A stretch of DNA of 64,000 nt from Flavobacterium sp. 9. Its GTDB lineage: Bacteria; Bacteroidota; Bacteroidia; Flavobacteriales; Flavobacteriaceae. Shown here in pieces: positions 1 through 16,497 of this stretch (position 1 is the first letter of the stretch; each line of letters opens with the position of its first letter). The translations under genes were made by a program, and so were the position numbers. The notes below the pieces were generated by a model. The model made no database searches. It had not been told where the DNA came from and was given only the letters and a program-made list of their open reading frames with translations. The stretch covers positions 2,604,001-2,668,000 of the forward strand of contig NZ_PEEU01000001.1 in assembly GCF_002754195.1 (NCBI RefSeq). Reading direction: 5' to 3'.

Positions 1-1209
1 GTAATTGATGCCGTAAAAGACAATGCAAACGATAGTAATAAACTAAATATTGCCAGAATCTGGAAAGCATATTTGTATCATAGAATTACAGATTTATACG
101 GAGACATTCCTTATTCTGAAGCTGCAAAAGCAAATAGTACACAAGTATTTCTTCCAAAATATGATACTCAGGAATTCATATACAAAGATTTATTGAAAGA
201 ACTTGACGAAGCTGCAACAGCATTAGATCCAGCGAAACCAAGTTTTGGTAAAGCCGATTTTATCTATGACGGAGATGTTGCAAAATGGAAAAAATTCTCT
301 TATTCTTTAATGCTTCGTTTAGGATTAAGATTAAGTAAAGTTGATGCCGCTCTATCAAAAACATGGGTTACAAAAGCAATTGCCGGAGGAGTTATCCTTA
401 ACGGAACTGACAATGCAATCATGAAATATACAGATGGTCCAAATGATTTTAACAGAAACCCTGTTGGTTTTGACGCCAGAAGACAAGATTTCACAAATGG
501 ATCATACGGTCAAAAAAATGTTGAAGGCGGAAAATTAGCTAAGACATTCATCGATTTATTAAAAAATACTGCCGATCCAAGAATTAGTGTTTATGCAGGA
601 GTTTGGGAAGGTACAACACAAAATACAAGTGCAGCGGTTCAAAAAGGTTTTCCTAACGGAACTAAAAATGCTCCAACACCAATTGAACAAGCAACTTATT
701 CTGAGCCTAATCAAAGTACTATTTTTAAATACGATGCGCCACTTGTTCTTTTAAGCAATGCCGAAACTAATTTATATCTAGCCGAAGCCGCCGTAAGAGG
801 ATGGTATTCTGGCGAAACAGATAAAGATCTATATGAAAAAGGTGTAAAAGCTTCTTTCTTAAACATGGGGATTTACGGATCGACTTATGCAATTTCGGAC
901 GCAACACCATATTTAACTGCAAATCCATATAATGCAGCAGGATCTTTTGAAGCTAAAATGAATCAGATTCACACTCAGGTTTATGTTGCTTTATTTGTAG
1001 ACGAACAAGAAATTTATGCCAACTGGAGAAGAACCGGTTATCCAGTTTTGGTTCCGGTAAATTTTCCTGGAAACGTTACAAACGGCACAATCCCAAGACG
1101 TTTGAAATATTCAACAAGTGAATATTCAGTGAATTCAACTAACTTAGCTGAAGCAGTTAAACGCCAGGGCGAAGATAGTTTTACAACAAAAATCTGGTGG
1201 GATAAATAA
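1..1209 (+). CDS. SusD/RagB-family outer-membrane nutrient-binding lipoprotein, 3' part
   Basis: The reading frame is open from base 1 with no stop, so about 402 C-terminal codons are present and the signal peptide, lipobox and start lie outside the window. Segments such as WKKFSYSLMLRLGLRLSK, the helical stretch around LYLAEAAVRGW and the ending EIYANWRRTGYP...TIPRRLKYS are typical of SusD-like proteins (the SusD-like_2 type branch). Family knowledge: these lipoproteins sit on the cell surface, bind a glycan or peptide and lid a SusC TonB-dependent transporter, whose gene is normally just upstream. Here the partner would lie before base 1. The downstream amino-sugar-acid genes and the GH20 hexosaminidase suggest, by inference only, a chito-oligosaccharide ligand. 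A large hairpin follows the stop codon, so the link to the permease gene downstream may be attenuated or broken. Confidence 0.9.
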   Translation, partial: VIDAVKDNANDSNKLNIARIWKAYLYHRITDLYGDIPYSEAAKANSTQVFLPKYDTQEFIYKDLLKELDEAATALDPAKPSFGKADFIYDGDVAKWKKFSYSLMLRLGLRLSKVDAALSKTWVTKAIAGGVILNGTDNAIMKYTDGPNDFNRNPVGFDARRQDFTNGSYGQKNVEGGKLAKTFIDLLKNTADPRISVYAGVWEGTTQNTSAAVQKGFPNGTKNAPTPIEQATYSEPNQSTIFKYDAPLVLLSNAETNLYLAEAAVRGWYSGETDKDLYEKGVKASFLNMGIYGSTYAISDATPYLTANPYNAAGSFEAKMNQIHTQVYVALFVDEQEIYANWRRTGYPVLVPVNFPGNVTNGTIPRRLKYSTSEYSVNSTNLAEAVKRQGEDSFTTKIWWDK

Positions 1210-1230
1210 AATATGAAACAAGAGTTAAAA

Positions 1231-1381
1231 TGTGCCTTTAGGCACTTAATGTTGGTAGTTATAAAGTTTCAAATTCGTTCGCGTGCCGTAGGTACGCAAC
1301 AAAACGATAACTATTGCGTACCTACGGCACGCTAGATATTGTGACTTATGTTTTTACCAATATTAAGTGTCTAACGACACA
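1231..1381. repeat. Nested palindromic element (two concentric inverted repeats)
   Basis: Bases 1281-1299 (GCGTGCCGTAGGTACGCAA) are perfectly inverted at 1314-1332 with a 14-nt loop. Outside this, 1231-1257 pairs with 1355-1381 with 23 of 27 positions matching. The whole 151-bp element could fold into one long hairpin. It lies between the SusD gene and the permease gene. It is G+C-richer than its surroundings and looks like a REP/MITE-type dispersed element. It has no T-run on either side, so it is not a standard intrinsic terminator. Confidence 0.85.
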
Positions 1382-1408
1382 AATTAAAACTCTTAATACA
1401 AAAGATAA

Positions 1409-2728
1409 ATGAGCATTTTAATTCTTACGGCATGCATTGCGTTTTTAATCATTCAGATAGCTTGGCTTAAAATCAATCCGTTTATTGCCTTTATCATAAC
1501 AGCTTTATTAGCAGGTTTATTTTTAGGCCTGCCAATAGAAACTTTATCTCAAACCGTACAAAAAGGTTTGGGCGAAATGTTAGGATCTATCACTTTGATT
1601 ATTGTTTTCGGAACCTGTATTGGTAAACTCACCGTTTCATCAGGCGCCGCCAATGTCATTGCCAAAACAGTTATGGGATGGACGGGTAAAAAATATGTTC
1701 GTCTTGGCTTAATGATTACCGGATTTATTGTTGGGATACCTCTATTTTATAGTGTTGGATTTGTTTTGTTAGTTCCATTAATCTTTTCAGTAGCCCATCA
1801 ATTTAAGCTTTCAAAAGTATATCTCGGTATTCCAATGCTGGCGTCGCTTTCAGTAGCACACGGTTTTTTGCCTCCACATCCGTCTCCAATGGCTTTAAGC
1901 AGTATTTTAAAAGCTGATATTGGACTCGTTTTAGTCTACGGAATCATCATTGCGATTCCAACAATTTTTATTGCAGGTTTATTGTTTTCGAATTTATTAA
2001 AAAACATCAAAACCGAATCGGATCATGAAATTCTGAATGTCGAAGAAATCATAAACGAAGGAAAACAACCTAGTTTTTCATTGAGTTTATTCTCCGCTTT
2101 ATTTCCGGTTTTTGGATTAACAATTACTTCGATATTACCAATGATTTCGAAAAATGAAACTCTGGTGAATATCTGCAAAACAGTTGGAGAACCAAGTATG
2201 ATTATGCTGATTTCTCTATTAATCTGTACGTATACATTAGGAATCAGAATGAACAGAAGCATCACATCAGTAATGGACGATTATGCCGTTGCCATAAAAG
2301 ATGTTGCTTTAATTGTTTTAATTGTTGGAGGAGCCGGTGGTTTAAAAGAAGTTATGATTGTAAGCGGTGTAAACGAAACTATTGTAGCATCATTAACACA
2401 AACAAACATTCATCCATATTTATTGGCCTGGATGATGGCGGCAATCATACGCGTTTGTGTAGGTTCTGCTACAGCAGCCGGATTAATGACTGCGAGCGTT
2501 TTATTACCTTTGTTACAAACTACCGGCCTCGATCCCAATCTGTTAGTTCTGTCTGTTGGAGCCGGAAGCTTAATGTGCTCACACGTAAACGATCCAAGTT
2601 TTTGGATGTTCAAAGAATATTTTAATATCAGCCTGAAAGATACATTCAAATCATGGACCGTCATGGAATCTCTAGTATCTGTTTTAGGAATCATTTTCGT
2701 TTTTATTTTAAACTCTATAATACATTAA
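1409..2728 (+). CDS. GntP-family permease (gluconate:H+ symporter type)
   Basis: A 439-residue polytopic inner-membrane protein of the usual GntP length, with about 12 hydrophobic segments. Family signatures visible are the conserved loop HGFLPPHPSP near residues 150-160, the glycine-rich GGAGGLKEVMIVSGV segment and the C-terminal GAGSLMCSHVNDPSFWMFKEYF. Known members import gluconate, other aldonic acids, D-serine or related hydroxy acids with protons. It is the first gene of a tight run (4 nt to ridA) that ends in KDG kinase and KDPG aldolase, so I infer the substrate is an aldonic acid, possibly N-acetylglucosaminic acid. The start ATG follows an A-rich AAAAGATAA region typical for this group. 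No clear promoter was seen between it and the palindrome upstream. Confidence 0.92.
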   Translation: MSILILTACIAFLIIQIAWLKINPFIAFIITALLAGLFLGLPIETLSQTVQKGLGEMLGSITLIIVFGTCIGKLTVSSGAANVIAKTVMGWTGKKYVRLGLMITGFIVGIPLFYSVGFVLLVPLIFSVAHQFKLSKVYLGIPMLASLSVAHGFLPPHPSPMALSSILKADIGLVLVYGIIIAIPTIFIAGLLFSNLLKNIKTESDHEILNVEEIINEGKQPSFSLSLFSALFPVFGLTITSILPMISKNETLVNICKTVGEPSMIMLISLLICTYTLGIRMNRSITSVMDDYAVAIKDVALIVLIVGGAGGLKEVMIVSGVNETIVASLTQTNIHPYLLAWMMAAIIRVCVGSATAAGLMTASVLLPLLQTTGLDPNLLVLSVGAGSLMCSHVNDPSFWMFKEYFNISLKDTFKSWTVMESLVSVLGIIFVFILNSIIH

Positions 2729-2732
2729 TATC

Positions 2733-3200
2733 ATGAATTTATTACCACAAGAAAAATTTGAAACATTAGGCTTATCATTACCTCCGGCGCCGCAGCCACT
2801 TGGTATTTATAAACCTTATTTAGTTGATGGTAAATATTTATACCTTTCAGGTCATGGACCTGTTAATGACGACAAATCCCTAATCATTGGCCGAATTGGC
2901 GATGACATGGATATCGAAGAAGGAAAATTAGCAGCAAGACAAGTCGGATTAACAATGCTTTCTACAATTGTAACCAATTTTGGAAGCCTGAATAAAGTAA
3001 AACGTGTTATAAAAGTTTTAGGAATGGTCAATTGTAATGGCGAATTCTTGAGACATCCGTACGTAATAAACGGTTGTAGCGAATTGTTTGCTGAAGTTTG
3101 GGGACAAGAAAACGGAATTGGAGTAAGAAGCGCCGTAGGAATGGGTTCTTTACCGGACAATATTCCTGTTGAAGTTGAAGCCGTTTTCGAATTATTTTAG
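2733..3200 (+). CDS. RidA/YjgF-family enamine/imine deaminase-like protein
   Basis: 155 residues, longer than the 128-residue E. coli RidA because of an N-terminal extension and an insertion, as in the YjgH-like subgroups. The segment GVRSAVGMGSLPDNIPVEVE aligns with the RidA signature and keeps the arginine (equivalent to Arg105) that binds the carboxylate of 2-aminoacrylate-like intermediates. RidA proteins form trimers and speed the hydrolysis of enamine/imine products released by PLP-dependent dehydratases. The gene lies 4 nt after the permease and in the same run as a D-threonine-aldolase-fold PLP enzyme, which fits that role: clearing the imine made during deamination of an amino acid or amino-sugar acid. 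Confidence 0.9.
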   Translation: MNLLPQEKFETLGLSLPPAPQPLGIYKPYLVDGKYLYLSGHGPVNDDKSLIIGRIGDDMDIEEGKLAARQVGLTMLSTIVTNFGSLNKVKRVIKVLGMVNCNGEFLRHPYVINGCSELFAEVWGQENGIGVRSAVGMGSLPDNIPVEVEAVFELF

Positions 3201-3258
3201 ATTAAAGAATTTAGCCCACGGGTTTTACGGATTAAACAGGTTCGCACAGATTTTTTTT

Positions 3259-3395
3259 AACACATAGAAACATAGATTTTTTACTTGTAAACTAGAAGGA
3301 AGTAAAAAAAAGCCAGCTTTCACACATAGCTATGTGCATTAATGCAAGTGAAATGCCTTTTTTCAACACTTTCAAAAACTATGTTTCTATGTGTT
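3259..3395. repeat. Inverted-repeat element inside the operon
   Basis: A perfect 17-bp inverted repeat, AACACATAGAAACATAG at 3259-3275 and its complement at 3379-3395, brackets a 137-bp segment. Inside lies a smaller palindrome around ACATAGCTATGTG (3323-3336). The element fills most of the 262-bp gap between ridA and the KDG kinase gene. It resembles the short ACATAG-rich dispersed repeats common in Flavobacterium genomes (recollection, not tested). It may separate transcription or processing of the upstream and downstream halves of the operon. Confidence 0.75.
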
Positions 3396-3462
3396 TAAAG
3401 AATTAACCGCTACGTTTATAAATCTTTTTAATCATAATAATCCGTGGCAAAAAAACAAAAAT

Positions 3463-4491
3463 ATGAATACAACACCACAAACTAGAATTGCAACTTTTGG
3501 AGAATTATTACTTCGGATGAATGTTGCTGATGGAAACCGATTTACGCAGGCCAATGAAATAAAAATTCATGTTGGCGGTGCCGAAGCAAATGTTTGTGTT
3601 TTACTTTCTCAACTCGGGATTCAAACCGATTATATTACCCGATTACCCGAAAATGATTTGGCTCAACTCGCCTTAAACGAACTTCAGAAATACAAAGTAA
3701 ATACCTCAAAATGTGTTTATGGCGGAGAACGTTTGGGATTGTATTTTGTCGAAGCCGGAAATCAAATCAGGCAATCACAAGTTATTTATGACCGAAGCAA
3801 TTCTTCATTTGGAACCATTCAAAAAGATCAAATCAATTGGGATTTGGCTTTAGCCGATGTTACACACTTTCATTGGTCAGGAATAAGTCCGGGAGTTTCA
3901 AACGAAGCAGGTTTAGCTTGTAAAGAAGCAATTCTTGTGGCACATAAAAAAGGTTTACCCATTTCGTCTGATTTTAATTACCGATCCAAATTGTGGCAAT
4001 ACGGAAAACAACCTTCTGAAATTATGCCTGATTTGCTTCAATACAGTACAATTACGGTTGCAGATTTAGATGCGATTGAAATTTATTTCGGAATCAAAAC
4101 CGATAAAAATGAATCAGATGAAAATCGTTTTCAGAAAACATTCGAATTATTAAAAGTAAAAATGCCATTTCTAAAAACATTAGCGATGAGTTTTAGAAAA
4201 TCAGATGGACCGGCGCATTTATACAAAGGTTTACTAATTCATAATGATAATTTTTATCAAACCCAAGAACACAAAATACACGTTGTAACAGATCAAATTG
4301 GTTCCGGAGATGCTTTCAACGCAGGATTATTATACGGATTATCGAATAAATTTTCAGGACAGGAATGTATCGAATGGGCAACAGCTTGTGGCGTAATCAA
4401 ACAAAGTATTCACGGAGATTTTGCCATCACAAATGAAAACGAAATAAGTCATTTCATCAAAAATGGCTCAAGTAATAGAATTAATAGATAA
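3463..4491 (+). CDS. kdgK: PfkB-family sugar kinase, probable 2-dehydro-3-deoxygluconate kinase
   Basis: 342 residues from ATG 3463. The frame is open back to 3391, but that extension begins inside the inverted-repeat element and has no family similarity, so the ATG opening TPQTRIATFGELLLRMN is preferred. PfkB features: the N-terminal GGAEANVCVLLSQLG ligand-binding motif and the C-terminal DQIGSGDAFNAGLLYG motif with the catalytic Asp and anion hole. The product phosphorylates 2-keto-3-deoxygluconate to KDPG using ATP. The next gene, 9 nt downstream, is a KDPG aldolase, which makes KDG the most likely substrate. 2-Keto-3-deoxygalactonate or another keto-sugar acid cannot be excluded. Confidence 0.9.
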   Translation: MNTTPQTRIATFGELLLRMNVADGNRFTQANEIKIHVGGAEANVCVLLSQLGIQTDYITRLPENDLAQLALNELQKYKVNTSKCVYGGERLGLYFVEAGNQIRQSQVIYDRSNSSFGTIQKDQINWDLALADVTHFHWSGISPGVSNEAGLACKEAILVAHKKGLPISSDFNYRSKLWQYGKQPSEIMPDLLQYSTITVADLDAIEIYFGIKTDKNESDENRFQKTFELLKVKMPFLKTLAMSFRKSDGPAHLYKGLLIHNDNFYQTQEHKIHVVTDQIGSGDAFNAGLLYGLSNKFSGQECIEWATACGVIKQSIHGDFAITNENEISHFIKNGSSNRINR

Positions 4492-4500
4492 AATAAGAAA

Positions 4501-5148
4501 ATGTACAGCATATTAAAAACGCAAGGTGTACTTCCGTTAGTAACCCAAATCAACATTGAAACAGCCCAAATAGTATTGCAATCAGCGGCTGATGCTGGCA
4601 TTAAAATTATCGAGTTTGCTGCTCGTGCAGATGATGCTAAAGAAGTTTTTAGCCAAATGATAGCCTTTAAAAAAGCAAATAATTTAGATGTAAAAATCGC
4701 CGTTGGATCTATTTTAAGTGTAGATGATGCCGAAACATTTCATCTTCTTGGAGCAGATTGTATTGTTTGCCCGCATACAGATCTGGAAATTGGAAATTAT
4801 TGCTTCAAAAATAATATCTATTGGATTCCCGGAGCCGCGACTTTAAACGAAATACTTCAGGCAAATAAATTAGGAGCCGAAATTGTAAAGCTTTTTCCAG
4901 CTGATAAAATTGGTGGTCCGGGATATGTAAAAGCAATTAGAGCGCCATTCCCAAATTTAAAAATAATGCCAACCGGAGGCGTAACGCTCGAAGAAAGCAA
5001 TTTAAAATCATGGTTCAAATCCGGAGTAGTTTGCGTGGGAATTGGTTCTAATTTATTTTCGAAAGAAATGCTTTTGAATTTAAATTATGAGCAATCTCTA
5101 AAGGCATTCCAAAATTTAATTGAAGTTGTAGAAAAAACCAGAAACTAA
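4501..5148 (+). CDS. eda: KDPG / 4-hydroxy-2-oxoglutarate class I aldolase
   Basis: 215 residues, the normal length of the Eda family, a trimeric TIM barrel. The Schiff-base lysine lies in EIVKLFPADKIGGPGYVKAI and the general base in KIIEFAARADDA. The phosphate-binding MPTGGV motif is also present. The enzyme splits 2-keto-3-deoxy-6-phosphogluconate into pyruvate and glyceraldehyde-3-phosphate in the cytoplasm. It sits 9 nt after the KDG kinase and 4 nt before the PLP enzyme, so the last two steps of a keto-deoxy-sugar-acid route are co-transcribed. Confidence 0.92.
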   Translation: MYSILKTQGVLPLVTQINIETAQIVLQSAADAGIKIIEFAARADDAKEVFSQMIAFKKANNLDVKIAVGSILSVDDAETFHLLGADCIVCPHTDLEIGNYCFKNNIYWIPGAATLNEILQANKLGAEIVKLFPADKIGGPGYVKAIRAPFPNLKIMPTGGVTLEESNLKSWFKSGVVCVGIGSNLFSKEMLLNLNYEQSLKAFQNLIEVVEKTRN

Positions 5149-5152
5149 AGTT

Positions 5153-6268
5153 ATGCAAAACAATTGGTGGAAAATTAATTCCGAACTCCGCATTGATACG
5201 CCATTTTTAGCCGTTTACGAAGATCGTATTCAGGCAAATATTGAGCGTTTGATTGAAGCAGTAAAAGGCGAAACTCAAAAATTAAGACCACACATCAAGA
5301 CGCATAAAATAGGTGAAATTCTGGATTTGTTTAAAACCTACAACATCAATAAAATAAAATGCGCAACAATTGCCGAAGCTGAATTGGCTGCGATACATGA
5401 AATTCCAGACGTACTTCTCGCCTATCAACCTGTTGGTGCTAAAAAAGACAGATGGATTTCATTGATTCAGAAATATCCAAATGTTGCTTTTTCGACTATT
5501 GTTGACAATTTAAATTCGGCGAAAGCCTTAAATGAAAGTGCGGCAAAAAACAATTTAAAACTTACAGTTTATCTGGATTTAAATACCGGAATGAACAGAA
5601 CAGGAATTTCGGTTTCTAAAAACTGGAAAGCTTTAATTGATGAAATTGTTTTGTTGAAAAACATTCATTTTGCAGGAATTCATATTTATGACGGTCATTT
5701 AAAAGGAGATTTAGAACATCGATTTGATACCGCTTCCAATTTATTTTTTAGCATAAACGAAGAAATTCAGGCGATTAATAAAAAACTGGGATACGAATTA
5801 AAAATTGTCGCGGGCGGATCAAATACATTTCCGTTTTACGCAACTCAAAAAAACGTAGAATGTAGTCCCGGAACTTTTGTTTTTTGGGATTCGAATTACC
5901 AAATTCATTTACCGGAACAACATTTTGAACCTGCTTTGGTTATCGTTGGAACCATAATTTCAAAACCAACAAGCTCTACTTTTTGTATTGACATTGGATA
6001 CAAAGCCGTAGCTTCTGAAAACCCAATTGATAAAAGATTAATCATTTTAAATGATGAAAACCTAATCCCAACAGCACATTCAGAAGAACATTTAATTATA
6101 GAAAACAGAGGAAAAAACGAGTATGCTATTGGCGATACCATTTATGCACAACCTTATCATGTTTGCCCAACTTGTGCTCTTTACGATTCAGTTCAGGTCG
6201 TGAATTCGGCACATGAAATTTGCGATCAATGGCTGGTTGTTGCCCGCAGCAGAAAAATTAATATCTAG
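5153..6268 (+). CDS. D-threonine-aldolase/D-serine-dehydratase-fold PLP enzyme, candidate D-glucosaminate dehydratase
   Basis: 371 residues: an alanine-racemase-like TIM barrel followed by the D-Ser dehydratase-like C-terminal domain. The PLP lysine is K49 in RPHIKTHK. The phosphate/ring-binding AGGSNTFPFYA motif is present. The metal site near the C-terminus reads H336-x-C338 (QPYHVCPTC). From recollection, zinc-dependent D-serine dehydratases use His-x-Cys while true D-threonine aldolases use His-x-Asp, so elimination of water and ammonia fits better than aldol cleavage. With RidA, KDG kinase and KDPG aldolase as neighbours, I infer conversion of D-glucosaminate (2-amino-2-deoxygluconate) to KDG and NH3. 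D-serine or beta-hydroxyaspartate dehydratase activity are alternatives. Confidence 0.88.
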   Translation: MQNNWWKINSELRIDTPFLAVYEDRIQANIERLIEAVKGETQKLRPHIKTHKIGEILDLFKTYNINKIKCATIAEAELAAIHEIPDVLLAYQPVGAKKDRWISLIQKYPNVAFSTIVDNLNSAKALNESAAKNNLKLTVYLDLNTGMNRTGISVSKNWKALIDEIVLLKNIHFAGIHIYDGHLKGDLEHRFDTASNLFFSINEEIQAINKKLGYELKIVAGGSNTFPFYATQKNVECSPGTFVFWDSNYQIHLPEQHFEPALVIVGTIISKPTSSTFCIDIGYKAVASENPIDKRLIILNDENLIPTAHSEEHLIIENRGKNEYAIGDTIYAQPYHVCPTCALYDSVQVVNSAHEICDQWLVVARSRKINI

Positions 6269-6397
6269 CAGCAGAAAAAGTAGAATAAAGAAAAAAGAAT
6301 AGAAAATAGAGCGAAGAAGAAAGAGAATAGACCTCATAATAACACTTGTCTGGAAAACCTCTGAGCCTTTGGACCTTTGTGCCTTAAAAAAAATAAT

Positions 6398-7468
6398 ATG
6401 TTTATAATAGACGCCCATTTAGACCTGAGCATGAATGCGATGGAATGGAATCGAGATTTAAGAAATGACGTACCAACTTTGCGTCATCTCGAAAAAGGAA
6501 TGACGGACAAACCAGATCGCGAACGCGCAACGGTTTCGTTCCCTGATTTACGACGTGGCAATATTGGTATTGTTGTCGCCACTCAAATTGCAAGATTCGT
6601 AAAACCGGACAGTATTATTCCGGGTTGGAATTCTCCTGAACAAGCCTGGGCACAAACTCAAGGGCAGCTTGCGTGGTACAAAGCCATGGAAGAAGCCGGA
6701 GAAATCACAGCAATTACCGATAAAAAATCATTACTAAAACAAATTGATTTATGGAATGACGGAACACCAAACGATAAAAAACCCATTGGTTATATTTTGA
6801 GTTTGGAAGGCGCAGATTCTATTATTGATGTTTCGTATTTAGAAAAAGCATACAATTACGGATTGCGTGCCATTGGTCCTGCACATTACGGACCCGGACG
6901 TTACGCAAACGGAACCGACGCAACCGGAAAAATGAACCAAAACGGTCTTGATTTATTAAAAGAAATGGAACGTTTGAATATTATTCTCGATGCAACCCAT
7001 TTATGCGATGATGCTTTTTGGCAAGCTTTAGACCATTATCACGGGCCAGTTTGGGCAAGTCATAACAATTGCAGAAGTCTAGTTAATCACAATCGTCAAT
7101 ATAGCGATGAAATGATTCAAGCTTTAATTTCTCGTGGCGCCGTAATTGGCGGTGCTTTAGATGCGTGGATGTTAGTTCCGGATTGGGAAAGAGGAGTTTC
7201 AACACCAAAAGGTACTAATTGCAATCTCGAAACGGTTTTCAAACACATGGATCACATTTGTCAATTGGCCGGAAATGCCAATCACATTGGCGTAGGTTCT
7301 GATTTGGATGGCGCTTTTGGTACAGAACAAGGTCCGTATGATTTAGACACCATTGCCGATTTACAAAAATTGGTTCTGATCTTTAAAAACAACGGCTATT
7401 CTGATGAAGATTTAGATAAAATCTTTCACCAAAACTGGATCAATTTCTTAATGAAAAATTGGGATTAA
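6398..7468 (+). CDS. M19-family dipeptidase-like metallohydrolase, candidate N-acetyl-amino-sugar-acid deacetylase
   Basis: 356 residues from ATG 6398; the open frame to 6377 has no ATG. The renal-dipeptidase zinc ligands are all visible: H7 and D9 (IIDAHLDLS), E137 (LEGAD), H201 (LDATHLCDDAF) and H222 (ASHNNCRSL). There is no signal peptide, so the protein is cytoplasmic. M19 enzymes belong to the amidohydrolase superfamily and cleave dipeptides with a D-residue or N-acyl bonds. Position after the PLP enzyme (129-nt gap) suggests it generates that enzyme's substrate. I infer, without proof, deacetylation of N-acetylglucosaminic acid. A D-amino-acid dipeptidase feeding D-serine-like substrates is the alternative. 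Confidence 0.88.
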   Translation: MFIIDAHLDLSMNAMEWNRDLRNDVPTLRHLEKGMTDKPDRERATVSFPDLRRGNIGIVVATQIARFVKPDSIIPGWNSPEQAWAQTQGQLAWYKAMEEAGEITAITDKKSLLKQIDLWNDGTPNDKKPIGYILSLEGADSIIDVSYLEKAYNYGLRAIGPAHYGPGRYANGTDATGKMNQNGLDLLKEMERLNIILDATHLCDDAFWQALDHYHGPVWASHNNCRSLVNHNRQYSDEMIQALISRGAVIGGALDAWMLVPDWERGVSTPKGTNCNLETVFKHMDHICQLAGNANHIGVGSDLDGAFGTEQGPYDLDTIADLQKLVLIFKNNGYSDEDLDKIFHQNWINFLMKNWD

Positions 7469-8244
7469 ATAAAGACTAAACTTGGAACTGCCTTCTTATA
7501 CGACTGTAATTTTTCGTCGGTTGGATCAACTTCTGTAACCACATAATCAACCTCGGATAAGTTGGCAATTTTCATTTTTAAAACTGTGTCTAGTTTTTCA
7601 GAAATAGTTAAAATCGCTGTTTTTTCAGAAGCCTGAATCATAGCTTTTTTTACCTGAACAGTTTCCCAATCAGAGTCTGAGAAACCACCTTCGATATCCA
7701 AAGCATTTGTTCCTAATATTAATAAATCGACTTTAATATTAGCCAATTGATTGTAGACATCGCCACTCACACACATTTGGCTGTAAGATGAAATGCTTCC
7801 GCCAATCATGATAATTTTAACATTAGGTTTATCCAGAAGTTCAACTGCTGACAAAACCGTAACCGTAAAAATAGTTAGATTCATATCGTCAGGAATCAAT
7901 CGGATGAATTCACGAATTGTAGTTCCTCCGCCAATTAATAAAACCATTCCGTCGCGAAGTAAACCTAAAGTTTTTTGCGCAATAATTTGTTTAGATTCGC
8001 CTGCATAAGTCTGATTATTAGTCGAAGAATGGTGATATGCTTTTGTCATCGCACCACCTTTTACCTTAATCAATAAAGATTCTGATTCAAGTTCGTTAAT
8101 ATCACGTCTCACCGTATCTTCTGAAACAAATAATTTAGCCGAAAGCGTTTCAAAACTTACACGAGTATGCAAGTTAATCTCTTTTAAAATAAGACTTTTA
8201 CGTTCTTCCTTGGTATAATTAACTACTTCATTATCATTATTCAT
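7465..8244 (-). CDS. DeoR/GlpR-family transcriptional repressor
   Basis: 259 residues from ATG 8244; eight more codons are open upstream, but the ATG and its distance from the -7 element at 8266-8273 favour this start. N-terminal DeoR helix-turn-helix: TLSAKLFVSEDTVRRDINEL followed by the KGGAM hinge. The C-terminal sugar-isomerase-like sensor domain has the GGGTTIREFIRLIP ligand loop. These proteins usually repress sugar operons and are released by a phosphorylated intermediate such as KDPG (inference). The gene converges on the M19 gene with a 4-nt overlap of their 3' ends and is divergent from the GH20 gene. This makes it the likely local regulator of the whole cluster. Confidence 0.9.
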   Translation of the reverse strand: MNNDNEVVNYTKEERKSLILKEINLHTRVSFETLSAKLFVSEDTVRRDINELESESLLIKVKGGAMTKAYHHSSTNNQTYAGESKQIIAQKTLGLLRDGMVLLIGGGTTIREFIRLIPDDMNLTIFTVTVLSAVELLDKPNVKIIMIGGSISSYSQMCVSGDVYNQLANIKVDLLILGTNALDIEGGFSDSDWETVQVKKAMIQASEKTAILTISEKLDTVLKMKIANLSEVDYVVTEVDPTDEKLQSYKKAVPSLVFI

Positions 8245-8265
8245 GCGAATTCTTTTTAAGTAAAG

Positions 8266-8273
8266 CAAATGTA
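8266..8273 (-). promoter_or_regulatory. Putative -7 element for the DeoR gene
   Basis: The minus strand reads TACATTTG, a perfect match to the Bacteroidetes TAnnTTTG element, 22 nt upstream of the DeoR start codon. No good TTTG lies at the expected -33 spacing, so the assignment is moderate. Confidence 0.45.
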
Positions 8274-8283
8274 AACAATAAAT

Positions 8284-8296
8284 GCAATATTATTGC
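8284..8296. promoter_or_regulatory. Candidate operator palindrome
   Basis: Perfect palindrome GCAATA-T-TATTGC in the divergent DeoR/GH20 intergenic region, immediately upstream of the DeoR -7 element. The size, symmetry and position suit an operator for the neighbouring DeoR-type repressor. This is inference; no second copy was found in front of the permease gene. Confidence 0.4.
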
Positions 8297-8401
8297 GAAA
8301 CAAATTATAACACAATGTAATAAAAAAGTTAATTCACCTATTTTAAAGACATCTATGCCTAAATAAGTTTTGCAAAAAAAATGCAAATCCATTACAAACC
8401 T

Positions 8402-8409
8402 TAAATTTG
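8402..8409 (+). promoter_or_regulatory. Putative -7 element for the GH20 gene
   Basis: TAAATTTG matches TAnnTTTG exactly and lies 23 nt upstream of the GH20 ATG. The nearest TTTG (8369-8372) is 29 nt away, too far for a consensus -33, so this promoter may need activation or be weak. Confidence 0.45.
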
Positions 8410-8432
8410 TTTAACAAACCAAGAAAGCAACC

Positions 8433-10736
8433 ATGCAAAAAAGTATATTTCTCTTATTGATCTTTTGGTATTCTTTTGGAAGCGCTCAAACTTCCTTCAC
8501 TAATAATTCGATTATTCCTGCTCCAAATTCATATAAAGCAACCGGAGACAGTATTCGTTTAAACGGACAAATTAAAGTTATTTTCGAAAAGAATAAATTT
8601 AGTGCGAAAGAACAAAAAACAGCAAACATTTTTGAAGCTGCTATTAACAAAAATGTATCTTCAAAAAAGGGTTCGGTCGAAGTTTTATTCATTACTAAAA
8701 ATCCATCTGCTTCCTTAAAAAAAGAAGCGTATAAAATCAATATTACCTCAAAAAAAATAACCGTTACCGGAAGTGAAGAAGGATTATTTTATGGAGTTCA
8801 GAGTTTATTGCAAATGCTTCCGAACAAAATTACGAATCAAGAGGTAAAATTACCTTGCGTTACTATCGAAGATGAGCCTAGATACAACTACCGCGGGCTT
8901 CACCTCGATGTTTGCCGTCATTTTTTCTCTGTTGATGTTATAAAAGATTTTATTGCACAAATGTCCAGTTATAAATTAAATAATTTCCATTGGCATTTAA
9001 CGGACGATCAAGGATGGAGAATTGAGATAAAAAAGTATCCAAAACTAACTGAAGTAGGTTCGAAAAGAGCACAGACTTTAGTGGGAAATAAATTCGAAAG
9101 ATTCCCGTATTTTTTTGACGGAAATCCATACGGAGGATTTTACACTCAGGAAGAAATTAAAGACGTTGTTAAATTTGCCGAAGAACATTATGTGAATATT
9201 ATTCCGGAAATTGAAATGCCCGGTCATGCAACTGCAGCAGTTACTGCTTATCCAAATTTATCTTGTTTTCCAGATCGTCAATATAAAGTTATAGAATCAT
9301 GGGGCGTTTTTGAAGATATTTTCTGTGCCGGAAAAGAGGAGACTTTTACTTTTTTAGAAGATGTTCTGACGGAAGTTATGGCTTTGTTCCCGAGTACTTA
9401 TATTCATATTGGTGGAGACGAATGTCCAAAAGCAAGATGGAAAGAATGTCCGAATTGCCAAAAGCGAATCAAAGAATTAGGTTTGAAAAACGAACATGAA
9501 TTACAAAGTTATCTCACAACCCGAATCGAGAAATTCCTGAATGCAAACGGAAGACAAATTTTAGGCTGGGACGAAATGCTCGAAGGTGGGCTTGCGCCAA
9601 ATGCGGCTGTAATGTCATGGCGAGGCGAAGCTGGAGGAATCAGCGCCGCAAGACAAAAACACAATGTAATCATGAATCCGGAGCAAGTTTTGTATCTGGA
9701 TTATAATCAAGGATATTCACCGCAAGAACCTTTAACAATTGGGAGATTAACAACAGTTGAAAAAATCTACAATTACAACCCAACTCCCGTTGATAGTTTG
9801 ACCGTCGACCAACAAAAATATATTATAGGTGTACAATCTAATCTTTGGTCTGAATATTTAACAAGTCCTGCGAAATTAAATTACATGATTTATCCTCGTG
9901 TATTTGCTTTAGCAGAAATTGCCTGGACAGAACCTCAAAATAAAAATTACAATCAGTTTATTTTGAATCAAATTCCGCATCATTTAGAAAAACTAGAAGC
10001 ACAAAAAAGATTGTATAAAGTTCCGAGTCCTTTTGGTTCTAATGAAACAGCATTGATCACATCAAAATATATTTTGGATTTAAAACCAACGATCAAAAGC
10101 GGACAAATCTTCTACACAATTGATGGATACAATCCAGATGAAACAGCTGAACTTTACACAAAACCGGTAACGATAAATATCCCAAAAGGAGAATTCAGAA
10201 TTATAAAAACGGTTCAGATTAGTCCAAGCGGAAGAAGAAGTTCGATCAATAAAATATTGGTTAGAAATCCGGAATTAAAATCGGCTTTAGCTATAAAACC
10301 AACTAAGAAAGGTTTAAAATTCGATTATTATACCGGAACATTATTCCAGCAAGTTCAGGATTTAGATTTAGCAAAACCTGTTAATTCAGGCATTTTTGAA
10401 GGCGCCATCAGCAGCGAAAAATGGAAAACGAAAACAGAGCGTTATATCGGCTTAAAATTCGACGGATACATCTTTATTCCAGAAACGGCAAATTATACAA
10501 TTTCGACGCTTTCAGATGACGGCTCGAAGCTTTTTATCGATAATGAATTAGTTGTAAATAACGATGGAATTCATTGGCTCAACGAAGCCTATGGCGCTGT
10601 AAAACTCGAAAAAGGTTTCCATAAAATCAACATTGGTTATTTTGACCAGATTGGCGGAACTACTTTAACGTGTTTCATTCAGCAAGAAGGAAAAGAAAAA
10701 CAAGAAATAAGCGCTTCGCAATTGTATTACGAATAA
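8433..10736 (+). CDS. Secreted GH20 beta-N-acetylhexosaminidase with C-terminal PA14 domain
   Basis: 767 residues with an N-terminal signal peptide (QKSIFLLLIFWYSFGSAQ). Order: GH20b-like alpha/beta domain at about 25-145, GH20 TIM barrel at about 150-500, a small beta region, then a PA14 carbohydrate-binding-type domain at about 625-765. The catalytic pair D329-E330 lies in YIHIGGDECPKARW, and the substrate-distorting motif FHWHLTDDQGW at 185-195 is intact. The enzyme removes terminal GlcNAc (or GalNAc) by substrate-assisted catalysis, probably in the periplasm or at the outer membrane. Context with aldonic-acid genes suggests it releases the terminal residue of chito-oligosaccharides, including oxidised ends. 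It has its own promoter, divergent from the DeoR gene. Confidence 0.93.
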   Translation: MQKSIFLLLIFWYSFGSAQTSFTNNSIIPAPNSYKATGDSIRLNGQIKVIFEKNKFSAKEQKTANIFEAAINKNVSSKKGSVEVLFITKNPSASLKKEAYKINITSKKITVTGSEEGLFYGVQSLLQMLPNKITNQEVKLPCVTIEDEPRYNYRGLHLDVCRHFFSVDVIKDFIAQMSSYKLNNFHWHLTDDQGWRIEIKKYPKLTEVGSKRAQTLVGNKFERFPYFFDGNPYGGFYTQEEIKDVVKFAEEHYVNIIPEIEMPGHATAAVTAYPNLSCFPDRQYKVIESWGVFEDIFCAGKEETFTFLEDVLTEVMALFPSTYIHIGGDECPKARWKECPNCQKRIKELGLKNEHELQSYLTTRIEKFLNANGRQILGWDEMLEGGLAPNAAVMSWRGEAGGISAARQKHNVIMNPEQVLYLDYNQGYSPQEPLTIGRLTTVEKIYNYNPTPVDSLTVDQQKYIIGVQSNLWSEYLTSPAKLNYMIYPRVFALAEIAWTEPQNKNYNQFILNQIPHHLEKLEAQKRLYKVPSPFGSNETALITSKYILDLKPTIKSGQIFYTIDGYNPDETAELYTKPVTINIPKGEFRIIKTVQISPSGRRSSINKILVRNPELKSALAIKPTKKGLKFDYYTGTLFQQVQDLDLAKPVNSGIFEGAISSEKWKTKTERYIGLKFDGYIFIPETANYTISTLSDDGSKLFIDNELVVNNDGIHWLNEAYGAVKLEKGFHKINIGYFDQIGGTTLTCFIQQEGKEKQEISASQLYYE

Positions 10737-16209: not shown

Positions 16210-16497
16210 AAGATTGCGTTAACAAAATCTTTGTCAAAGTTTTAAACTTTGACAAAGATCATTCGATCAAAACCATAGCCAATGGTTTCAACCATTGGAA
16301 CGCAATGGATTGTCTCAATATAAATCATCATAAAACGTTTCCTAAGGTTGAAACCTCGGGCTATAATTAAAATACAATGTTTACAAAAACAATAAGTCGC
16401 AAAATTTTATATTCCTTTTAAACACAAAGCTTTGCGAACTTTGTGATTTTTAAGACATCACAAAAATAAAATCCTTGCGCACTTTGCGGTTAAATTC

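What the first reader, a model, noticed from the sequence alone, without database searches (positions are those of the whole stretch)
1..10736. Candidate locus for catabolism of oxidised chitin ends (N-acetylglucosaminic acid)
Seen: SusD, GntP permease, RidA, KDG kinase, KDPG aldolase, a D-threonine-aldolase-fold PLP enzyme, an M19 metallohydrolase, DeoR regulator and GH20-PA14 hexosaminidase in 10.7 kb. Established (recollection): in marine Pseudoalteromonas an oxidative chitin pathway follows LPMO attack and turns N-acetylglucosaminic acid into KDPG, acetate and ammonia by steps like D-amino acid breakdown. Inference: each step has a candidate here: GH20 for release, GntP for import, M19 for deacetylation, PLP enzyme with RidA for deamination to KDG, then kinase and aldolase. 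A SusD partner and GntP would make it a Flavobacterium version with its own uptake.
Basis: partly seen in the sequence, partly recalled or inferred. Interest (0 to 1): 0.75.

Follow-up and report, generated by a model that had tools for sequence, protein, structure and literature searches.

The report
Flavobacterium gene set for aminosugar acids
A Flavobacterium gene cluster looks built to import a small amino-sugar molecule and turn it into pyruvate by steps like those of a known marine chitin-oxidation pathway, but with mostly unrelated enzymes and in a genome without the chitin-oxidising enzyme itself; what it really eats has to be tested at the bench.

Summary
The genes are real and the unit is larger than reported: SusC lies just outside the window. 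Three results make it one unit: GH20 comes and goes with the operon (6 of 6 against 0 of 33 Flavobacterium genomes); one 15-bp operator-like site stands twice before susC and once before GH20 and is conserved; the order is kept in 30 of 35 related loci. The PLP enzyme has the His/Cys metal pair of D-serine dehydratases, not the His/Asp of D-threonine aldolases, in 66 of 66 aligned Bacteroidota sequences, so it should release ammonia. Kinase and aldolase are a second copy of the pair in the genome's hexuronate cluster. The roles match the published ong pathway, but against a Vibrio ong cluster 1 of 8 proteins passes the authors' homology rule; deacylase, carrier and regulator are unrelated. This genome has no AA10 LPMO. 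M19 as deacetylase and oxidised chitin as source stay unproven; nine Flavobacterium variants and 28 of 28 distant loci lack the kinase/aldolase pair. Best reading: an independently assembled amino-sugar-acid regulon, perhaps scavenging ends oxidised by others.

The parts
1..1209 (+). SusD-like lipoprotein (start at L001:19680 outside the window); SusC partner at L001:16447-19647
   Evidence: Pfam PF12771/PF12741; full frame and SusC from upstream DNA
1409..2728 (+). GntP-family permease, gluconate type
   Evidence: PF02447; NCBIfam gluconate model 402 bits vs DsdX (D-serine) 230 bits
2733..3200 (+). RidA-type protein (YjgF_endoribonc subfamily), probable enamine/imine deaminase
   Evidence: PF14588
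3252..3402 (.). Imperfect inverted repeat, arms 29 nt, in the RidA-kinase gap (probably a small repeat element; role unknown)
3463..4491 (+). PfkB sugar kinase, probable 2-keto-3-deoxygluconate kinase
   Evidence: PF00294; best NCBIfam model is the kinase part of a KHG/KDPG aldolase-kinase fusion, below its cut-off; 40% identical to the kinase of the genome's hexuronate cluster
4501..5148 (+). KDPG/KHG aldolase
   Evidence: PF01081; 39% identical to the hexuronate-cluster aldolase
5153..6268 (+). Fold-type III PLP enzyme with His/Cys metal pair: predicted D-amino (sugar) acid dehydratase/ammonia-lyase
   Evidence: literature passage
6398..7468 (+). M19 metallohydrolase, all eight checked catalytic-site residues present, no signal peptide by eye; predicted N-deacylase or dipeptidase
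7465..8268 (-). DeoR-family regulator, convergent with M19 and overlapping it by 4 bp
   Evidence: PF00455/PF08220
8370..8386 (.). Operator-like inverted repeat TTGCAAAAAAAATGCAA; its 15-bp core stands twice before susC (L001:16388-16402 and 16408-16422)
8402..8409 (+). TAAATTTG, fits the Bacteroidota -7 promoter box TAnnTTTG (consensus recalled), before GH20
8433..10736 (+). GH20 beta-N-acetylhexosaminidase with Fn3_assoc/CHB_HEX_C and PA14 domains, secreted (signal peptide judged by eye)

Best explanation
A small carbohydrate-utilisation regulon for a 2-amino-2-deoxy-sugar acid (aldonic acid), most likely glucosaminic acid or its N-acyl form. SusC/SusD import a short beta-HexNAc-containing molecule; the secreted GH20 removes the HexNAc in the periplasm; GntP carries the acid into the cell; M19 removes the N-acyl group; the PLP enzyme with RidA dehydrates and deaminates the free amino acid to 2-keto-3-deoxygluconate; the kinase and aldolase turn this into pyruvate and glyceraldehyde 3-phosphate; the DeoR protein represses susC-M19 and GH20 through the TTGCA-N7-TGCAA site. 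Shown here by sequence: gene set, order, co-inheritance, shared site, dehydratase-type metal site, paralogy of kinase and aldolase. Inferred: every substrate, DeoR as the binder and the direction of regulation, M19 as N-deacylase, oxidised chitin as the source.
For: GH20 orthologue (73-100% identity) in 6 of 6 Flavobacterium genomes that have the PLP enzyme and in 0 of 33 that lack it (4 of the 33 have a 47-49% GH20 that is not beside sdhB). Cassette-free sites, one with an orphan DeoR gene. The exact 15-mer three times in 84 kb, all before susC or GH20; a relaxed form before susC in 31 of 32 loci, before gntP in 8 of 8 loci without susCD, before GH20 in 31 of 34 loci that carry kinase and aldolase. 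His/Cys metal pair in 66 of 66 aligned Bacteroidota sequences; the aldolase base His193 replaced by Gly in 36 of 36 Flavobacterium-type sequences (rule from PMC4401734, passages). The OngC homologue of a Vibrio ong cluster (assigned by gene content) has the same pair; OngC of Pseudoalteromonas was shown to make KDG and ammonia from glucosaminate (PMC9537276, section read). Gluconate-type GntP, 8 of 8. KDPG aldolase family in 37 of 38 Bacteroidota genomes with the PLP enzyme against 159 of 357 without, 125 of 357 if the curated cut-off is required (taking the two draws of 395 to be the same). One distant locus has an acetyl-CoA hydrolase/transferase gene after M19, fitting release of acetate (one case among 20 neighbour proteins scanned).
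Against: Kinase and aldolase are missing from the locus in 5 of 35 related loci plus four more fetched ones, and no match to them was found in 28 of 28 more distant loci (one of these, L084, has a PfkB relative found with the Vibrio kinase), while RidA-PLP-M19 still stand together in 12 of the 28; the core may therefore serve ordinary D-amino acids. M19 enzymes are known as dipeptidases; the 16 solved matches carry no deacetylase name. GH20 lacks the shared site at its promoter in 9 of 9 loci without the kinase/aldolase pair. The window copy of the site alone is not rare (11 of 100 shuffles reach it), and the relaxed pattern also occurs elsewhere (9 matches in the window, 10 in 78 kb of other own DNA that includes the susC sites). 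The aldolase co-occurrence weakens within Flavobacterium: 10 of 10 against 9 of 14.
Confidence: 0.5

Rival explanations
1. Oxidised chitin ends proper: the natural substrate is GlcNAc-GlcNAc1A made by LPMOs of other organisms; the Flavobacterium scavenges it.
For: Step order fits the proven pathway of PMC9537276; GH20 is co-inherited and shares the operator-like site; six GH18 matches in the genome, so chitin chemistry is at home; among the 26 SusD matches in solved structures one is named chitin-binding (8j0p, E 2e-32, thirteenth in rank).
Against: No AA10 LPMO in this genome, in 1 of 43 genomes with the PLP enzyme, no BBE-domain oligosaccharide oxidase. The PLP enzyme does not group with OngC, and no convincing OngB relative is among the eight own-genome pieces compared. 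No GH18 gene in the locus.
Confidence: 0.3
2. D-amino acid dipeptide pathway: M19 splits L-Xaa-D-Ser-type dipeptides, the PLP enzyme with RidA deaminates the D-amino acid; kinase and aldolase serve another, co-imported sugar acid.
For: RidA-PLP-M19 stand together without the kinase/aldolase pair in distant Bacteroidota, including Parabacteroides distasonis and Hymenobacter volaticus; M19 and RidA are more conserved (medians 67% and 72.5%) than the PLP enzyme (41%) in 14 such loci; OngC itself also deaminates D-serine and D-threonine (PMC9537276).
Against: GntP scores gluconate over D-serine carrier in 8 of 8 proteins. Kinase and aldolase sit inside the operon between RidA and the PLP gene. GH20 and SusCD have no evident role in it.
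Confidence: 0.25
3. Another amino-sugar acid or N-aminoacyl sugar acid (for example galactosaminic acid, or 2-aminogluconate from lipid A), giving KDG or KDGal.
For: Nothing in the sequence fixes the sugar; kinase models matched include bifunctional KDG/KDGal ones, all below their cut-offs.
Against: No gene of a galactose-type route was recognised in the locus; speculative.
Confidence: 0.15
4. D-threonine aldolase or 3-hydroxy-D-aspartate aldolase, as database names suggest.
For: Best overall matches are D-threonine aldolase 4v15 and the BhcC model.
Against: Metal residue Cys instead of Asp in 66 of 66 and no base His193 in 36 of 36 Flavobacterium-type sequences; three solved aldolases have both.
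Confidence: 0.05

Closest known systems
ong cluster of Pseudoalteromonas/Vibrio (oxidative chitin utilisation, PMC9537276)
   Same: Same order of chemical roles: TonB-type outer-membrane import, GH20, inner-membrane carrier, N-deacylase (here a candidate), fold-III PLP deaminase, RidA, KDG kinase, KDPG aldolase (the last in Vibrio clusters).
   Different: Against the Vibrio sp. THAF191d cluster L127: GH20 35%, aldolase 26%, kinase 24%, PLP enzyme 22%; RidA no significant match; M19 vs Amidohydro_3 OngB, GntP vs SSS, DeoR vs RpiR without similarity. Outer-membrane receptors not compared. No AA10 LPMO in this genome.
Zn-dependent D-serine dehydratase (chicken, 3anu) within fold-type III PLP enzymes
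   Same: Lys, His and Cys at the key positions, Gly at 193.
   Different: Only distant sequence similarity; its place in the tree is unsure; substrate of the window enzyme unknown.
M19 membrane dipeptidase family
   Same: Eight checked catalytic-site residues kept in 19 of 19 cluster M19 proteins.
   Different: Judged cytoplasmic by eye; tied to RidA and a PLP deaminase; no NCBIfam match for the window protein or that of L112.
Chitin utilisation locus of Flavobacterium johnsoniae (PMC5127042, passages)
   Same: SusCD pair plus GH20.
   Different: That locus has chitinases ChiA/ChiB and NagB and the hydrolytic route; here no chitinase and an Entner-Doudoroff-type end.

Membership tests
ong cluster (PMC9537276) | At least four co-occurring genes homologous to ong genes at E < 1e-5 and > 30% identity | tested here: not met
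   1 of 8 (GH20, 34.8%) against a Vibrio ong cluster, L127, itself recognised by gene content; three more pass on E-value only (22-26%); sequences of ACAM 620 were not available and SusC was not compared with the ong receptors
ong cluster (PMC9537276) | AA10 LPMO in the genome | tested here: not met
   0 matches to PF03067 in own genome; 1 of 43 genomes with the PLP enzyme
GlcNAc1A deacetylase OngB family | D-aminoacylase-like Amidohydro_3 protein | tested here: not met
   M19 has no similarity to OngB. Elsewhere in the genome: best OngB match in eight pieces around PF07969 hits is 33% over 90 residues; not a whole-genome search with OngB
OngC clade | Groups with OngC in a tree | tested here: not met
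   55-row tree: OngC homologue and 3gwq split off with 100/100; the window enzyme is in a 46-row group (98/97) of all 45 Bacteroidota rows used and one Bradyrhizobium row (long branches noted there)
Fold-III PLP dehydratases with His/Cys metal site | His-x-Cys metal pair | tested here: met
   66 of 66 aligned Bacteroidota sequences
D-threonine aldolase | His347/Asp349 metal pair and His193 base | tested here: not met
   Cys at 349 and Gly at 193 in 36 of 36 Flavobacterium-type sequences
M19 dipeptidase family | Pfam Peptidase_M19 over its cut-off with intact metal ligands | tested here: met
   160 bits vs cut-off 26; residues (which residues are ligands is recalled)
M19 dipeptidase family | Dipeptidase activity | not testable with these tools
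   needs an assay
Polysaccharide utilisation locus | Adjacent SusC/SusD pair with carbohydrate-active enzyme | tested here: met
   GH20 linked by shared site
KDG kinase / KDPG aldolase | Catalysis on KDG and KDPG | not testable with these tools
   Homology only: 40% and 39% to the pair in the own hexuronate cluster; below NCBIfam cut-offs

The most novel reading that the evidence does not exclude
Bacteroidota have built their own route for oxidised chitin ends by convergence: an M19 'dipeptidase' acts as N-acetylglucosaminate deacetylase and a dehydratase from outside the OngC clade makes KDG, inside a SusCD/GH20 regulon of bacteria that mostly have no AA10 LPMO and so live on ends oxidised by neighbours.
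Probability: 0.3. Interest if true: 0.72.

Novelty: new variant of a known kind. Interest (0 to 1): 0.52.

Why it matters
The published oxidative chitin pathway was reported from Gammaproteobacteria plus one betaproteobacterium (PMC9537276, section read). A non-orthologous counterpart in Flavobacterium would show that amino-sugar acids are a traded carbon and nitrogen source, would give M19 hydrolases a new activity, and would help explain a RidA-PLP-M19 gene triad found in 12 of 28 sampled distant Bacteroidota loci.

Tried and rejected
Rejected: aldolase function of the PLP enzyme (metal pair and base); own AA10 supply; own BBE-type oxidase; GH20 as a chance neighbour. Kinase/aldolase as a test for KDG: three genomes without the local pair each have one KDG kinase elsewhere; beside it lies an aldolase and no copy of the shared site (L144-L146), and in the one of these three read for neighbours (L144) a uronate isomerase gene, so their absence does not exclude KDG. 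The Vibrio PLP proteins first taken for OngC (L109, L110) have His/Asp, and no ong genes were seen around L109; the true candidate was found in the same record as L109. Of the neighbours of distant loci, 20 proteins were scanned and gave no common pathway: aminotransferase III, 3-hydroxyacyl-CoA dehydrogenase, ceramidase-like, GH63-like and others. SusD matches to solved structures name several ligands (mixed-linkage glucan high in the list, chitin lower) and the best one none: no conclusion. Literature: searches found no paper; the listings of 8 (20 of 112), (2 of 3; 10 of 11; 12 of 16; 7 of 8; 12 of 463) showed no paper that I recognised as describing such a cluster in Bacteroidota; most of one search was not seen. 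Structure prediction was not run: it would not tell the substrate.
Full report
Observation. The window is part of a 6.33-Mb single-contig genome; its nearest relatives in the scan are records named Flavobacterium or [Flexibacter] (97-98% in the PLP enzyme). Reading upstream gives the SusC partner (L001:16447-19647) and the start of SusD (L001:19680). The unit is therefore susC-susD-gntP-ridA-kinase-aldolase-PLP-M19, a convergent deoR, and GH20 divergent from deoR, followed by sdhB-sdhA-sdhC.

Conservation. In 35 loci from named genomes (34 Flavobacterium, one [Flexibacter], compared) GntP, RidA, PLP enzyme, M19, DeoR and GH20 are present in 35 of 35, SusC and SusD in 31 of 35, kinase and aldolase in 30 of 35. 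Five loci lack kinase/aldolase (L031-L034, L037), as do four further fetched ones (L102, L103, L104, L107). In a sample of 395 Bacteroidota genomes 38 have the PLP enzyme at E <= 1e-30: 10 Flavobacterium, 28 others. Around these 28 the window's proteins find M19 in 16, RidA in 14, GntP in 6, and kinase, aldolase and GH20 in 0 (20 kb each, E <= 1e-4); with the Vibrio kinase as query one PfkB relative appears (L084). RidA, PLP enzyme and M19 stand together in 12 of the 28 and in two plasmid records (P. distasonis, H. volaticus). In these 14 loci the median identity to the window is 67% for M19, 72.5% for RidA and 41% for the PLP enzyme: M19 and RidA changed least, the PLP enzyme more.

GH20 belongs to the unit. 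Among 39 Flavobacterium genomes the GH20 orthologue is found in 6 of 6 with the PLP enzyme (73-100% identity) and in 0 of 33 without; four of the 33 have a 47-49% GH20 that is not near sdhB. Five cassette-free sdhB neighbourhoods were fetched (compared). In L135 only 1.2 kb without a long gene separates the upstream flanking gene from sdhB. L132 keeps only an orphan deoR between them, which speaks for loss of the block. In L131 the upstream gene lies beyond the sdh and HMG-CoA-synthase genes. In L133 and L134 it was not found in the stretch. The site described next is absent, at up to two mismatches, from L131, L132 and L135.

Shared site. An inverted repeat TTGCA-N7-TGCAA links the two transcription units (found). 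Its 15-bp core TGCAAAAAAAATGCA occurs twice in L001, 20 bp apart before susC (0.05 expected for up to one mismatch; 0 of 200 shuffles reach two), and once in the window, before GH20 (0.13 expected; 11 of 100 shuffles reach one). The pattern TTGCAN7TGCA alone is not significant in the window (2 matches, which are one palindrome; 0.96 expected). A relaxed pattern also occurs elsewhere (9 matches in the window, 10 in 78 kb of other own DNA including the susC sites), so the weight rests on the core and on place and conservation. With the relaxed pattern the site is present before susC in 31 of 32 loci, before gntP in 8 of 8 loci without susCD, before GH20 at the same place in 31 of 34 loci with kinase/aldolase (30 of the 31 with a TAnnTTTG box behind it) and 0 of 9 without, and in 0 of 34, 0 of 9 and 0 of 43 of the other gaps of the operon. 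The 32 and 8 leave out three loci in which the upstream gene was not matched. The core was absent at up to two mismatches from six stretches holding other KDG kinases. That the DeoR protein binds the site is inference.

Chemistry of the PLP enzyme. Overall similarity is highest to D-threonine aldolases, but the metal pair decides: a crystal paper (PMC4401734, passages) reports His347/Asp349 and a base His193 in the aldolase, and a histidine and a cysteine without the base in D-serine dehydratase. The window enzyme and its 35 relatives have His/Cys and glycine at 193 (36 of 36); 30 of 30 other Bacteroidota members aligned have His/Cys, with aspartate most often (18 of 30) and histidine once at 193. 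Three solved aldolases have His/Asp and His193; the OngC homologue of a Vibrio ong cluster has His/Cys. A dehydratase that frees ammonia is thus expected, and RidA beside it fits an enamine product. In a tree of 55 rows (9 of the 35 named loci, five more Flavobacterium loci, the window, 30 other Bacteroidota, four plasmid-record proteins, OngC and five solved enzymes) OngC and 3gwq form a separate clade (100/100), so the window enzyme does not group with OngC; the program warned of long branches. Loci without kinase/aldolase appear at three places of this tree: one clade of five (100/100), L031 beside a locus that has them (100/99), and L034 (95/63). The program's own count, which ignored unlabelled rows, needs only one change. 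L031 may be a recombinant. The pair was probably gained or lost more than once.

Kinase and aldolase. They are 40% and 39% identical to an adjacent pair in the genome itself (L129), in a cluster with UxaC, KduI, altronate-dehydratase, mannitol-dehydrogenase-type and short-chain-dehydrogenase genes, that is, hexuronate degradation (Pfam). Three genomes without the local pair each have one KDG kinase elsewhere, with an aldolase beside it; in L144, the one read for neighbours, a UxaC gene is next to it. KDG kinase matches were found in 6 of 6 Flavobacterium genomes with the PLP enzyme and 2 of 12 without, and the KDPG aldolase family in 37 of 38 Bacteroidota genomes with it and 159 of 357 without (125 of 357 over the curated cut-off); within Flavobacterium only 10 of 10 against 9 of 14 (assuming the same draw). 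Genome size and kinship confound these counts.

Carrier and deacylase. GntP proteins of the window and of seven related loci all score higher on the gluconate model than on the D-serine carrier DsdX (8 of 8). M19 keeps the eight catalytic-site positions that I checked (19 of 19 cluster proteins); which residues these are is recalled from dipeptidase structures. That it removes an acetyl group is not shown; the solved relatives are mostly named dipeptidases and none deacetylase. One locus (L074) places an acetyl-CoA hydrolase/transferase gene directly after M19, which would fit acetate release; a single case.

Comparison with the known pathway. PMC9537276 (abstract, sections 8, 13, 17 and passages) proved GlcNAc1A to glucosaminate to KDG to KDG-6-phosphate in Pseudoalteromonas, with OngA (GH20), OngB, OngC, OngD (RidA, needed but of unknown role), KdgK, an SSS carrier, a TonB receptor and an RpiR-type regulator. 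I found a cluster with these classes, except that I saw no TonB receptor, plus kdgA in Vibrio sp. THAF191d (L127). Against its eight proteins the window passes the authors' own homology rule for one. PMC12017989 (passages) shows that OngB is a D-aminoacylase relative; that text does not contain the words Bacteroid, Flavobacter or M19. PMC11653859 (passages) reports Aeromonas strains with LPMO but without clear OngB/OngC. PMC5127042 (passages) states that no LPMO was known in Bacteroidetes in 2016.

Source of substrate. The genome has no AA10 and no BBE-domain oxidase; 1 of 43 genomes with the PLP enzyme has an AA10 match. Oxidised chitin ends would thus have to come from other organisms, or the acid comes from another source. 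Other sugar-oxidising enzymes were not searched for.

Verdict. A real, co-inherited and probably co-regulated unit whose steps fit amino-sugar-acid catabolism; not a member of the ong family; chitin origin and the M19 role remain hypotheses.

Noticed in passing
L136 (G004:C28:19442-19888): A Flavobacterium genome with an AA10 LPMO domain match (85 bits, over the Pfam cut-off), although a 2016 paper says none was known in Bacteroidetes.
   Followed up: no
window 3252-3402: Imperfect inverted repeat (29-nt arms) in the RidA-kinase gap, whose length runs from about 100 to 426 bp among 34 loci; looks like a small repeat element inside the operon.
   Followed up: partly
L132:11051-11845: Orphan deoR between sdhB and the upstream flanking gene in a genome without the cassette, probably a footprint of its loss.
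   Followed up: partly
L031: GntP and RidA resemble the SusCD-less type (87%, 91%) while the PLP enzyme groups with a locus that has kinase/aldolase: possible recombination within the locus.
   Followed up: no
L076, L078, L096: Another Bacteroidota context: M19 53%, 56% and 57%; in L076 and L078 an aminotransferase III before M19 and a ceramidase-like protein between M19 and the PLP gene; a 3-hydroxyacyl-CoA dehydrogenase in L076 and L096.
   Followed up: partly
L111 (Parabacteroides distasonis plasmid 34): GntP-DUF4833-RidA-PLP-M19 on a 375-kb record annotated as a plasmid.
   Followed up: no
G000:C1:5836361-5837969: A further kinase/aldolase pair in the own genome, whose kinase match contains one stop codon.
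   Followed up: no
L127:957-11127: An ong-type cluster with kdgA (no TonB receptor seen) on a 1.85-Mb Vibrio replicon filed as a plasmid and without gene annotation there.
   Followed up: yes
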